Below are positions 2,169 through 6,333 of a stretch of DNA of 40,257 nucleotides, one piece after another; positions within the stretch are counted from its first letter, which is position 1, and each line of letters begins with the position of its first letter. Location: positions 1 to 40,257 of the forward strand of contig DAIDAX010000003.1 of NCBI GenBank assembly GCA_027310405.1, in the 5' to 3' direction. Origin of the DNA: a bacterium (lineage in GTDB: Archaea; Aenigmatarchaeota; Aenigmatarchaeia; CG10238-14; SCSR01). Below the pieces are notes generated by a model. The model was given only the letters and a program-made list of their open reading frames with translations, did no database searches and was not told where the DNA came from. The translations under genes and the position numbers were made by a program.

Positions 2169-3152
2169 ATGCAACTTATTATTGATGAATTTGGTACATT
2201 CATTGGCAAGAAGGAGAACAGATTCAAAATAATAATTAAGGAAAAGAAACAAGAATTCTCAGCAGATAAAGTAAGCCAAATTATAGTATCCTCGGCTTCT
2301 TCGATTTCCACAGATGCAATAAAATTAGCAATTGAAAATGGAATTGACATAGTATATATAAATTTCATTGGTAAACCCTATGCTCGCATTTACCCCTGTC
2401 AACTTGGTGGGACTACATTAACTCGGCGTATGCAAGCAAAAGAATATACTAGTCAGAGGGCAGCAGATGCAGTTAGAAGTATAGTTAAATCAAAAATAGT
2501 CAACCAAATTAATCTTTTGAAATACTTGAGTAAAGCTCGTAAAGATATAGATTTTGCAACAGAAATTCAAAAAATGAGTGATATGGTGGATAGCATAGAG
2601 TCCTTTGATGGGGATATAGATATTATCAGAGATAAGTTGCTTGGCGTTGAGGGTTATGCCGGAAATTTATACTTTTCCTGTCTAGCGAAGATTTTACCAT
2701 TCGAGAAGAGGGAACATGAAGCCAAAGATCCTTTCAATGTGATGCTAAATTACGGCTATGGAATTCTCTATTCTGAAATAGAAAAGGTCTGCGTACTTGC
2801 AGGTTTAGATCCTTATTTGGGATTTCTTCATACGGACAGATACGGCAAACCTTCGATGGTACTAGACTTGATTGAGGAGTTCCGCCAAGCTATTGTTGAT
2901 CGCGCAATAATAACAGTTTTTGCAAGGAAACAAGTTGAAGACAGTGATTTTGAAACTTCAGGCAATGAATTTTTGCTTAGTCCAAAGGGAAGGAAAAAAG
3001 TTATAGAAGCCGTTATGGAAAGATTGCATTCGAGAACAAAATATAAGAATCGTGAGTTGAGTCTACAAGGAATTATGTTGGAGCAAGCGAGGTTGTTTGC
3101 AAAAATGCTACTTGGGCAAGCAAAATATGACGCATTAGTTTACAAGTGGTAG
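2169..3152 (+). CDS. cas1: CRISPR-associated endonuclease Cas1
   Basis: 327 aa with Cas1 motifs GVEGYAGNLYF and GFLHTDRYGKPSMVLDLIEEFR. First gene of a cas1-cas2-cas4-effector run. Confidence 0.97.
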   Translation: MQLIIDEFGTFIGKKENRFKIIIKEKKQEFSADKVSQIIVSSASSISTDAIKLAIENGIDIVYINFIGKPYARIYPCQLGGTTLTRRMQAKEYTSQRAADAVRSIVKSKIVNQINLLKYLSKARKDIDFATEIQKMSDMVDSIESFDGDIDIIRDKLLGVEGYAGNLYFSCLAKILPFEKREHEAKDPFNVMLNYGYGILYSEIEKVCVLAGLDPYLGFLHTDRYGKPSMVLDLIEEFRQAIVDRAIITVFARKQVEDSDFETSGNEFLLSPKGRKKVIEAVMERLHSRTKYKNRELSLQGIMLEQARLFAKMLLGQAKYDALVYKW

Positions 3153-3154
3153 AT

Positions 3155-3475
3155 ATGTTGCATTGGATTATATACGACATAACAAGCAATAAGTTACGTT
3201 CGAAAGTTGCAAACAAATGCAAGAATTATGGAATGATACGTGTACAAAAGAGTGCTTTCCTCGGTGAGCTTACTCAAAACAAAGCTGAGATGCTTTCACT
3301 TGAAATTCATGAAGTTCTAGGAAAATCAAAAGATGCAGTTTTTATTTTTCCTTCATGTAAAGAATGTTTTGCAGATAAAATAATTGAAGGTTATTTAGAC
3401 GAAGAGTTTGTAAAGAAAAAAGATTTTCTAATAATTGGTGATGAGCATGGAAAAAAAGTACTTGACAGCAACTGA
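3155..3475 (+). CDS. cas2: CRISPR-associated endoribonuclease Cas2
   Basis: MLHWIIYDITSNKLRSKVANKCKNYGMIRVQKSAFLGEL is a Cas2 ferredoxin-like N-terminus. The ORF track starts at GTG 3146; ATG 3155 is the likely start. Confidence 0.95.
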   Translation: MLHWIIYDITSNKLRSKVANKCKNYGMIRVQKSAFLGELTQNKAEMLSLEIHEVLGKSKDAVFIFPSCKECFADKIIEGYLDEEFVKKKDFLIIGDEHGKKVLDSN

Positions 3476-4025
3476 TCTAATGAACTACAGCTACTGCCCT
3501 CGAATAATTTACTATACACAAGTCCTAAAAAAACCGCAGTTCACAACAAAAAAAGAATTTAAGGGGAGAGAAAAAGAAAGTGAGTTTAAAAGAAATGCAA
3601 ATAGAACAAAAGTTGTCAAGGATTATCCCAAACTTCCCAAAGTTTTTAAAGTTCACCTGGTCTCAGAAAAATTAGGGTTAAAGACTATTCTTGATTCCAT
3701 AATGATCGACAAAGAAAAGAATGAAGAATATCCTATACAGGCGAAATACAGTTTCAAGCCAAAGAAATTATTCAAGACACAAAGAGATCAATTGATGATG
3801 GAAGGTCTTCTGATAGAGGAGTGTCTTGGTTACAGAGTTCCATTTGGTTTTATAAAATTTTTAAAGTCTGGAGATTTGATTAAAGTCAATCTCGAAAATA
3901 AGTCGGAAGTGATTAATTTATTTAATAGAATATCAGAGATAATTAGAAACGAGAAGTTTCCAAAACCTACACCATATGGAAAAAGATGTGTAGACTGCTG
4001 CTATAAAAAAGATTGTTGGGGATAG
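3447..4025 (+). CDS. cas4: CRISPR-associated exonuclease Cas4-like
   Basis: N-terminal Cys (YSYCPRIIYY), LDSIM, QAKYSFKPKK and a C-terminal Cys cluster (RCVDCCYKKDC). Overlaps the cas2 end. The ORF track starts at TTG 3435; ATG 3441 or 3447 is likely. Confidence 0.9.
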   Translation: MEKKYLTATDLMNYSYCPRIIYYTQVLKKPQFTTKKEFKGREKESEFKRNANRTKVVKDYPKLPKVFKVHLVSEKLGLKTILDSIMIDKEKNEEYPIQAKYSFKPKKLFKTQRDQLMMEGLLIEECLGYRVPFGFIKFLKSGDLIKVNLENKSEVINLFNRISEIIRNEKFPKPTPYGKRCVDCCYKKDCWG

Positions 4026-4026
4026 A

Positions 4027-5655
4027 GTGAAAATAGTAACGAGAACATTGTCGCTTGGTATAATTAGACCCTATTATGGTAAAGAAGTAGAAGGAAGGAT
4101 AAAGGCTGAAAAAGATAATAGAGAGAAAGAATTTTTAGCAGCAAATAAAAATCTAATCTCTGATGAAAACGAACTGAAAAAGAAGGCTAAAGAAGCAAGA
4201 AAATTAGACCCAGCTTTTTGGTCTGCCCTTAAGAAAGAAAACCCAGAAATATTTACAATGAGAGAATTATCAGCCTTATTTTCACAACTGCAAAGACAAT
4301 ATGCACTTTTATACAATGAGACTATTAGTAAAATTTACGTTGAAGCACTTAAAACCAGAAAACTTAGTCGCGTGCAAAGTTTACTTAGTTCAATCGGCTA
4401 TAAGAAAGCTTATGAGGCATTCAAGGATTCTTCACTCGCATCTGGGTTAAGACAAAAATTACAAAGCAACTTCAATAAATCTAAATTTTATAATCTGATT
4501 AATGCAAGAATATCTTTACCCACAGCAACTTCTACAAATTTTCCTGTTTCTATATACAGGCAGACAAGCAGTGACAAATATGCAGGTTTTGAGATTCAGC
4601 CTAATAAGGAAGATTTCGTAATAAAGCTAACTTTGCCTGAATTCAAAATTAAGGAGAATGTTAATCCCAAAACTAAGAAAAAATTTCTTAGTTTTGAATT
4701 TTTAAAATCTCAGAAAAAGAAAGAAATATTTCTACTACTCTCAACAAAACGAAGAAGACAAAATGATAAACAATGGTTTGCTGATGAAGGTACAAGTGCT
4801 GAAATAAGAAAAGTAATTAATGGAGATCTAAAAAAAGAATGGGCAGAATATGCCAAAAGATTTGGAAAAGATAAAAATGAAAAAGACCAATTAAGAAATA
4901 AGTACAAAATTGGTTGGCTTGAAATAAGAAAGGGTAAAAAAATAGGCGAAAAATTTCGATGGTTTTTAAACTTAGTTATAGAACTGCCACCCAAAATGCA
5001 AAGATTAGATAAGAATATAGTTGGCGGAATAGACATCGGTGTCTCTAATCCAATCGTATGTGCTTTGAATAATTCTTTGAAAAGATATACAATAGGTAAT
5101 AACGATGTACTTTCATTTAATCGACATATGCAGGCTAGAAGGAGAATTCTTTTAAGAAAGAATCTCTTTAAAAGAAAAGGTCATGGGTCGAATAACAAAC
5201 TAGAGCCAATAACCTCTCTTACAGAAAAGAGCGAACGTTTTAGGAGTAAGATAATTGAGAGATGGGCAAAAGAGGTACAAAGATTCTTTTTACAAAATAG
5301 TTGTGGTATTGTTCAAATGGAAGATCTTAGTAACCTAAAAAATAAAGAAGATAATTTCTTTAATTTGTTTTTACGTGGTAAATGGCCATACGCAGAAATG
5401 CAAAATAACATAGAAAGAAAATTATCAGAAATTGGTATAGAAGTAAAAAAGATTTCTCCTAAATATACATCTCAGTTATGTTCAAACCCAAAATGTTTGA
5501 ACTGGAACAAGTGGTTTACATTTGCTTATAGAAAAGAAAATCGTTTTCCGTTATTTAAATGTGAGAAATGTAATTTAGAGGTTCCGGCTGACTACAATGC
5601 AGCTAAAAATATAGCTAATCCTAAAATAGAAAAAATAACAGAACGATTACGTTAG
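4027..5655 (+). CDS. cas12f: Compact type V-F effector nuclease, Cas14a/Cas12f1 family
   Basis: 542 aa, GTG start. RuvC-I GGIDIGVSNP (D336), RuvC-II VQMEDL (E432), zinc ribbon C-x4-C...C-x2-C, RuvC-III ADYNAAKN (D522). Shared blocks with Un1Cas12f1 from memory: ARRRILL-KN--KR-GHG, LTEKSERFR, LRG-WPYAEMQN-IE. Adjacent cas1/2/4, tracrRNA and array. Confidence 0.96.
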   Translation: MKIVTRTLSLGIIRPYYGKEVEGRIKAEKDNREKEFLAANKNLISDENELKKKAKEARKLDPAFWSALKKENPEIFTMRELSALFSQLQRQYALLYNETISKIYVEALKTRKLSRVQSLLSSIGYKKAYEAFKDSSLASGLRQKLQSNFNKSKFYNLINARISLPTATSTNFPVSIYRQTSSDKYAGFEIQPNKEDFVIKLTLPEFKIKENVNPKTKKKFLSFEFLKSQKKKEIFLLLSTKRRRQNDKQWFADEGTSAEIRKVINGDLKKEWAEYAKRFGKDKNEKDQLRNKYKIGWLEIRKGKKIGEKFRWFLNLVIELPPKMQRLDKNIVGGIDIGVSNPIVCALNNSLKRYTIGNNDVLSFNRHMQARRRILLRKNLFKRKGHGSNNKLEPITSLTEKSERFRSKIIERWAKEVQRFFLQNSCGIVQMEDLSNLKNKEDNFFNLFLRGKWPYAEMQNNIERKLSEIGIEVKKISPKYTSQLCSNPKCLNWNKWFTFAYRKENRFPLFKCEKCNLEVPADYNAAKNIANPKIEKITERLR

Positions 5656-5664
5656 ATTTATAAG
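5656..5664 (+). promoter_or_regulatory. Putative TATA box for the tracrRNA
   Basis: ATTTATAAG directly after the cas12f stop, about 26-30 nt upstream of the first conserved tracrRNA stem. Confidence 0.4.
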
Positions 5665-5687
5665 TAAGCTAAACAATGATTAAATTA

Positions 5688-5858
5688 TTCCTCTCTCTGG
5701 GAGTTAGATTTAGCATACAGCAGTATGCAGAGGCTAACTAAAGAGTCAGAGTGGGCAGCTTGCATCTGCCTAACATCGAGAAGTGCCTTCTATAGGTAAC
5801 CCTCGAAATACAAATTCAGTTCAAGAGTTACTGGAATTTCTTTATAAAGCATGTTGCA
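5688..5858 (+). ncRNA. tracrRNA of the type V-F system (ends approximate)
   Basis: GTGGGCAGCTTGCATCTGCCTAACATCGAGAAGTGCCTTCTATAGGTAACCCTCGAAATACAAATTCA closely matches the Cas14a1 tracrRNA core as remembered. Stems: AGTTAG/CTAACT (5702-5707/5734-5739), GCATAC/GTATGC (5713-5718/5723-5728), GGCAG/CTGCC (5754-5758/5766-5770), TCGAG/CTCGA (5776-5780/5802-5806). Anti-repeat GTTACTGGAAT at 5827-5837 plus AATTCA at 5813-5818. Confidence 0.92.
5841..5848 (+). promoter_or_regulatory. Putative TATA element for the CRISPR array leader
   Basis: TTTATAAA located 80 nt before the first repeat. Confidence 0.25.
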
Positions 5859-5927: not shown

Positions 5928-6333
5928 ATTCCAGTAACTGAATTAATGAATTAAGAAATGCAACTTTCTCTCATAACAACAGATTGAACTTCTATATTTA
6001 AAATTCCAGTAACTGAATTAATGAATTAAGAAATGCAACCCGCAATAGCTTATATTTATGAGAAGGAAATCGAATATTCCAGTAACTGAATTAATGAATT
6101 AAGAAATGCAACTCTGGAATCTTTAAGTTGTAGAGTTTCATTATTTTTTATTCCAGTAACTGAATTAATGAATTAAGAAATGCAACAGCAAATTAATTTG
6201 CGGAACGAGAACGGTTGGGTAAATTCCAGTAACTGAATTAATGAATTAAGAAATGCAACTCCAAAAGAAATTGATGTCCCGCAGTCGAACTTAAAAATTC
6301 CAGTAACTGAATTAATGAATTAAGAAATGCAAC
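5928..6333 (+). CRISPR. CRISPR array, 6 identical 37-nt repeats and 5 spacers (38, 36, 37, 36, 37 nt)
   Basis: Repeat ATTCCAGTAACTGAATTAATGAATTAAGAAATGCAAC at 5928-5964, 6003-6039, 6076-6112, 6150-6186, 6223-6259 and 6297-6333. Confidence 0.99.

What the first reader, a model, noticed from the sequence alone, without database searches (positions are those of the whole stretch)
5688..5858. tracrRNA directly visible between effector and array, with conserved Cas14a-type core and a compensatory swap
The stretch GTGGGCAGCTTGCATCTGCCTAACATCGAGAAGTGC...GGTAACCCTCGAAATACAAATTCA parallels the Un1Cas12f1 tracrRNA as I remember it (GTGGGCTGCTTGCATCAGCCTAATGTCGAGAAGTGC...AGTAACCCTCGAAACAAATTCA). The hairpin GGCTG/CAGCC becomes GGCAG/CTGCC, a pair-preserving change that argues for selection on structure. 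The 5' part is different in sequence but forms a nested stem AGTTAG[..GCATAC-agca-GTATGC..]CTAACT. The inner hairpin below TCGAG/CTCGA is reduced to CCT/AGG.
Basis: partly seen in the sequence, partly recalled or inferred. Interest (0 to 1): 0.85.

Follow-up and report, generated by a model that had tools for sequence, protein, structure and literature searches.

The report
tracrRNA of a Un1Cas12f1-like CRISPR locus
Between a miniature CRISPR nuclease gene and its CRISPR array, this archaeal genome encodes the guide-RNA partner (tracrRNA) of that nuclease; it has the architecture of the well-studied Un1Cas12f1 guide, so it is a genuine but ordinary new natural example with some informative differences in its outer parts.

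Summary
Observation confirmed. The genome record carrying the Un1Cas12f1 gene was found (L002, Woesearchaeota UBA12027), so the recalled sequence could be checked. A covariance model built from Un1 alone, with stems set from the published structure, hits window 5752-5807 at 63.6 bits (E 1.7e-14) and hits nothing else in the host genome.

The upstream gene is a Cas12f1 50% identical to Un1Cas12f1. RuvC residues, cysteines and the base-specific PAM residues are conserved. cas1-cas2-cas4 lie before it and a 6-repeat array after it.

The RNA keeps the elements reported to matter: stem 2, stem 3 with a UUGCAU loop matching the crRNA's AUGCAA, stem 4, and an anti-repeat. A third locus (G383) shares the core. 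Over three loci, 5 of 19 core pairs change on both sides. Anti-repeats follow their own repeats. Core-like matches also lie beside Cas12f-like genes on bacterial plasmids and a viral contig.

No transcript was tested. New member of a known kind.

The parts
2169..3152 (+). cas1
   Evidence: Pfam PF01867 E 1.8e-78, TIGR00287 above cut-off; the only Cas1 in the host genome
3155..3475 (+). cas2
   Evidence: PF09827 E 4.8e-18
3435..4025 (+). cas4 (start codon uncertain)
   Evidence: TIGR00372 83.7 bits, above cut-off 65
4027..5655 (+). Cas12f1 (Cas14a-type) effector, 542 aa, GTG start
   Evidence: phmmer E 6e-136 to Un1Cas12f1 7c7l; 50% identity; D336/E432/D522 and C485/C490/C512/C515 conserved
5657..5664 (+). 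candidate archaeal TATA box (TTTATAAG) for the tracrRNA
   Evidence: sequence; comparable TTTATA at 6579 in L002 just after the effector; inference, such motifs are common in AT-rich DNA
5689..5840 (+). tracrRNA (ends inferred)
   Evidence: covariance model, fold and anti-repeat
5691..5751 (+). stem 2 counterpart: outer 8-pair helix 5691-5698 with 5742-5745 and 5748-5751, inner stems 5702-5707/5734-5739 and 5713-5718/5723-5728
   Evidence: fold -20.6 kcal/mol; unrelated-sequence helices abut the same site in L002 and L009
5752..5772 (+). stem 3; loop UUGCAU 5760-5765 complementary to crRNA AUGCAA (AR:R1)
   Evidence: conserved in L002 and L009; role from PMC8053092
5776..5806 (+). stem 4: UCGAG/CUCGA with inner UGCCU/AGGUA and conserved AAG / ACC internal loop
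   Evidence: z -3.7
5813..5818 (+). AR:R2 anti-repeat AAUUCA pairing with repeat UGAAUU
5826..5837 (+). distal anti-repeat AGUUACUGGAAU, 12 perfect pairs with the repeat 5' part
5841..5848 (+). candidate TATA box (TTTATAAA) for the array; similar motif at this place in L002 and L009
   Evidence: inference
5928..6333 (+). CRISPR array, six identical 37-nt repeats ending GAAATGCAAC, five spacers of 36-38 nt

Best explanation
The region encodes the tracrRNA of a type V-F1 CRISPR-Cas12f1 system closely related in design to Un1Cas12f1. The RNA, about 150 nt from near 5689 to near 5840, pairs with each 37-nt repeat of the array through a bipartite anti-repeat: AAUUCA:UGAAUU plus AGUUACUGGAAU:AUUCCAGUAACU. 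A third contact runs from the stem 3 loop (UUGCAU) to the crRNA's terminal AUGCAA. Stems 2-4 dock an asymmetric Cas12f1 dimer. The loaded complex would cut DNA next to a T-rich (TTTA/TTTR) PAM. Shown here: homology, architecture, covariation and complementarity. Inferred from Un1Cas12f1: dimer binding, cutting, PAM. Not shown: transcription, ends, activity.
For: Un1-only covariance model with stems taken from the published structure scores 63.6 bits, E 1.7e-14, at 5752-5807, the sole hit in the host genome. Leave-one-out model (window+Un1) finds the third locus at its effector-array gap, E 7e-4 over 174 kb. Three-locus covariation 5/19 pairs, percent paired 89.5 versus 80.2 shuffled, 0/500. 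Anti-repeat complements its own repeat: 1 to 5 of 300 shuffled repeats do as well; L009's anti-repeat pairs 16 nt with its own different repeat. Effector 50% identical to Un1Cas12f1, with PAM residues S142, Y146, R163, Q197, Y202 kept. Roles of stems 2-4, AR:R1 and AR:R2 from PMC8053092 section 15. The three-locus model (R2) also gives hits beside Cas12f-like genes in L017, L041 and L038.
Against: No transcript data. The anti-repeat alone is not the best match in the window, because the repeat is AT-rich and chance matches score as high. The Un1-only model scores G383 weakly (15.8 bits, E 0.034), and scores in the bacterial and viral loci are low (9.7-16.1 bits). Xiao et al. found that no stem deletion they tested completely abolishes Un1 activity, so conservation of one element is not proof of need.
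Confidence: 0.95

Rival explanations
1. The region is a decayed or silent tracrRNA of a degraded locus: the sequence is a remnant but the system no longer works.
For: No spacer has a convincing target in the collections searched; the array is short; none of the other 159 genomes of the phylum searched has the effector.
Against: Effector open with an intact catalytic triad, intact cas1/2/4, six identical repeats, compensated stems and a matching anti-repeat.
Confidence: 0.04
2. The conserved stretch is conserved for another reason, such as a 3' UTR or regulatory element of the effector mRNA or an omega-RNA-like guide of a TnpB transposon, rather than a tracrRNA acting in trans.
For: It begins right after the effector stop codon and the effector belongs to the TnpB-like superfamily.
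Against: It lies next to a real array whose repeats it complements, with the same arrangement in three loci whose repeats differ; Un1's equivalent is an experimentally used tracrRNA. No transposon end was noted after it.
Confidence: 0.01

Closest known systems
Un1Cas12f1 (Cas14a1) tracrRNA, L002 6654-6814
   Same: Order and spacing of stem 2, stem 3 with UUGCAU loop, stem 4 with AAG/ACC internal loop, AR:R2, bipartite anti-repeat; most core columns identical
   Different: No stem 1; stem 2 unrelated in sequence and longer (61 versus 48 nt) with a regular inner hairpin; stem 4 inner helix 5 instead of 7 pairs; distal anti-repeat 12 perfect pairs against a weaker one in Un1
G383 locus (L009), effector 42% identical
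   Same: cas1-cas2-cas4-cas12f1-tracr-repeat order, stem 3/4 core, UUGCAU loop and repeat end GGAAUGCAAC
   Different: Stem 3 loop carries an insertion; stem 2 is longer and different; PAM residues not all conserved; only one repeat before the contig ends
Bacterial and viral Cas12f-like guide cores (L038 Brevibacillus plasmid, L041 Bacillus plasmid, L017 viral contig)
   Same: Core-like match beside the Cas12f-like gene; stem 3 and stem 4 both fold in L038 and L017
   Different: Smaller effectors; core diverged (9.7-16.1 bits); in L041 the minimum-energy fold does not show the two stems; in L017 the core lies before the effector gene

Membership tests
Type V-F1 Cas12f1 (Cas14a) system | Effector closest to characterised Cas12f1 | tested here: met
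   Un1Cas12f1 best by far: 457 bits versus 133 for the next solved Cas12f; Cas12f2 model far below cut-off (82.6 versus 450)
Type V-F1 Cas12f1 (Cas14a) system | RuvC D/E/D and zinc-binding cysteines | tested here: met
   D336, E432, D522; C485, C490, C512, C515
Type V-F1 Cas12f1 (Cas14a) system | Adjacent CRISPR array and adaptation genes | tested here: met
Type V-F1 Cas12f1 (Cas14a) system | T-rich PAM, dimeric RNA-guided DNA cutting | not testable with these tools
   PAM residues conserved but no confirmed protospacer
Un1Cas12f1-type tracrRNA | Stem 2 abutting stem 3 | tested here: met
   5691-5751; helix length alone not significant (p about 0.2)
Un1Cas12f1-type tracrRNA | Stem 3 with loop pairing to the crRNA 3' handle (AR:R1) | tested here: met
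   UUGCAU 5760-5765 versus AUGCAA at repeat end
Un1Cas12f1-type tracrRNA | Stem 4 | tested here: met
Un1Cas12f1-type tracrRNA | AR:R2 anti-repeat | tested here: met
Un1Cas12f1-type tracrRNA | Stem 1 | tested here: not met
   5656-5690 forms no helix. Stem 1 deletion leaves Un1 activity comparable, so it is a variable part, not a defining one
Un1Cas12f1-type tracrRNA | Expressed RNA with defined ends | not testable with these tools
   no RNA data

The most novel reading that the evidence does not exclude
This is a naturally different guide scaffold on the Un1 plan: no stem 1, a regular stem 2, a shortened stem 4 and a near-continuous repeat:anti-repeat duplex. It goes with an effector that lacks the N-terminal zinc-finger motif and the full dimer patch of Un1Cas12f1, which would mean guide and effector co-evolved in stem 4 and the dimer contacts.
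Probability: 0.3. Interest if true: 0.45.

Novelty: new member of a known kind. Interest (0 to 1): 0.3.

Why it matters
Un1Cas12f1 is a widely engineered mini-nuclease whose natural guide was trimmed by trial (PMC8763643). A sister at 50% identity with its own array and a divergent guide shows which parts nature keeps (stem 3, stem 4, AR:R1) and which it varies or drops (stem 1, stem 2 sequence). That agrees with the cryo-EM and engineering results and gives a natural alternative scaffold to test.

Tried and rejected
Rfam gathering scan: no family covers it. DNA similarity to plasmids and phages: chance-level matches only. Spacer targets: spacer 5 has a 22-nt exact match in viral contig L016, but only 25/37 overall with 5' flank AGGCGT, in a repeat-rich phage gene; judged chance. 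Other spacers: none. Exact tracr core pattern in viral contigs: none. Anti-repeat uniqueness in the window: failed, the AT-rich repeat gives stronger chance matches, including one at the cas4 start. Stem 2 helix length as a statistic: not significant by itself. Wider search for close homologues: only three loci in roughly 1,500 genome look-ups in the groups sampled, which overlap. Whether this effector equals one of the other Cas14a proteins (a2-a6) described in 2018 could not be checked, because their sequences are not in the tools used.

Full report
Observation. The stretch lies between the stop of a 542-codon ORF (4027-5655) and an array of six identical 37-nt repeats (5928-6333). cas1, cas2 and cas4 precede the ORF. 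The ORF product is 50% identical to Un1Cas12f1 (Cas14a1), its best match among solved structures by more than 300 bits. RuvC residues and cysteines are kept, and so are S142, Y146, R163, Q197 and Y202 of the Un1 PAM site (PMC8053092); H139 and K196 are S and R.

Checking the remembered sequence. A genome scan returned L002, a Woesearchaeota contig (DUHN01000005.1) that carries the Un1Cas12f1 gene itself. Numbering it from L002 6654 reproduces the stem intervals given by Xiao et al. 2021 (PMC8053092 section 15), so the published structure can be laid on the letters.

Independent test. A covariance model built from the Un1 core alone, with the stems assigned from that paper's intervals, finds window 5752-5807 at 63.6 bits, E 1.7e-14, and nothing else in the 0.54 Mb host genome. 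E-values from these models are rough, but the margin is large.

Third locus. G383 (L009) has the same gene order, an effector 42% identical and a related core. A model from window plus Un1 finds it at the right place with E 7e-4 over 174 kb that included control loci. Over the three, 5 of 19 pairs change on both sides, 89.5% of cells pair against 80.2% in shuffles (0/500), and sliding the partner destroys it.

Architecture. Folding 5688-5840 gives stems 2, 3 and 4 without constraints, z -2.7. Stem 2 ends immediately before the UGGG of stem 3, as in Un1 and G383, but its sequence differs in all three; helix length alone is not significant. Stem 3's loop UUGCAU is complementary to AUGCAA at the end of the repeat, the AR:R1 contact. 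The anti-repeat is AAUUCA (5813-5818) plus AGUUACUGGAAU (5826-5837). G383 and Un1 have different anti-repeats that fit their own repeats, which is co-variation between two RNAs; the Un1 repeat beyond its first 22 nt, which are in L002, was taken from memory. No stem 1 is present. TATA-like boxes at 5657 and 5841 would fit separate promoters for tracrRNA and array; this is inference.

Wider family. The three-locus model also gave matches beside Cas12f-like genes: downstream of them on Bacillus cereus and Brevibacillus plasmids (L041, L038), and upstream of one in a viral contig next to three repeats (L017). Scores are 9.7-16.1 bits; both stems fold in L038 and L017, while L041's minimum-energy fold does not show them. 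The core may therefore be a general Cas12f1 module.

Effector differences. The window protein lacks the cysteines of the Un1 N-terminal zinc-finger region, has about 25 extra residues near 268-292, and keeps only Y121 and L182 of the five dimer-patch residues (residues). Stem 4, which contacts both subunits in Un1, is two pairs shorter. Whether these go together is untested.

Verdict. It is a new natural member of a known kind. Transcription and activity remain to be shown.

Noticed in passing
L018 5163-5465 and upstream (IMGVR_UViG_3300001373_000001): A 118-kb viral contig with a Cas12f/TnpB-like gene (33% identity, residues 216-532) next to a CRISPR array with repeat GTTTGCAAACAACAATTGTTATGTTGAAAC.
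   Followed up: no
L017 3067-3354 and 3458-4732 (IMGVR_UViG_3300035532_000062): Viral contig with a 424-aa Cas12f-like gene preceded by a Cas12f1-type tracr core and three repeats, an inverted gene order.
   Followed up: partly
L039 2202-2372 and 2437-3780 (Alicyclobacillus phage MMB025): Phage record with a gene annotated transposase, Cas12f-like, beside an annotated CRISPR.
   Followed up: no
L041 3830-3903 and L038 3823-3900: Cas12f1-like core just downstream of genes annotated TnpB or transposase on Bacillus cereus and Brevibacillus plasmids, so these may be misannotated Cas12f1.
   Followed up: partly
window 3448-3507: The start of cas4 resembles the CRISPR repeat (CAGCAACTGATCTAATGAACTA); the strongest match in the anti-repeat scan. 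Probably coincidence.
   Followed up: no
window 4828-4905 (effector residues about 268-293): Insertion of about 25 residues relative to Un1Cas12f1; much longer in G383.
   Followed up: no
window 5853-5858: GUUGCA is complementary to the last six bases of the repeat (UGCAAC) and could compete with stem 3 in a longer precursor.
   Followed up: partly
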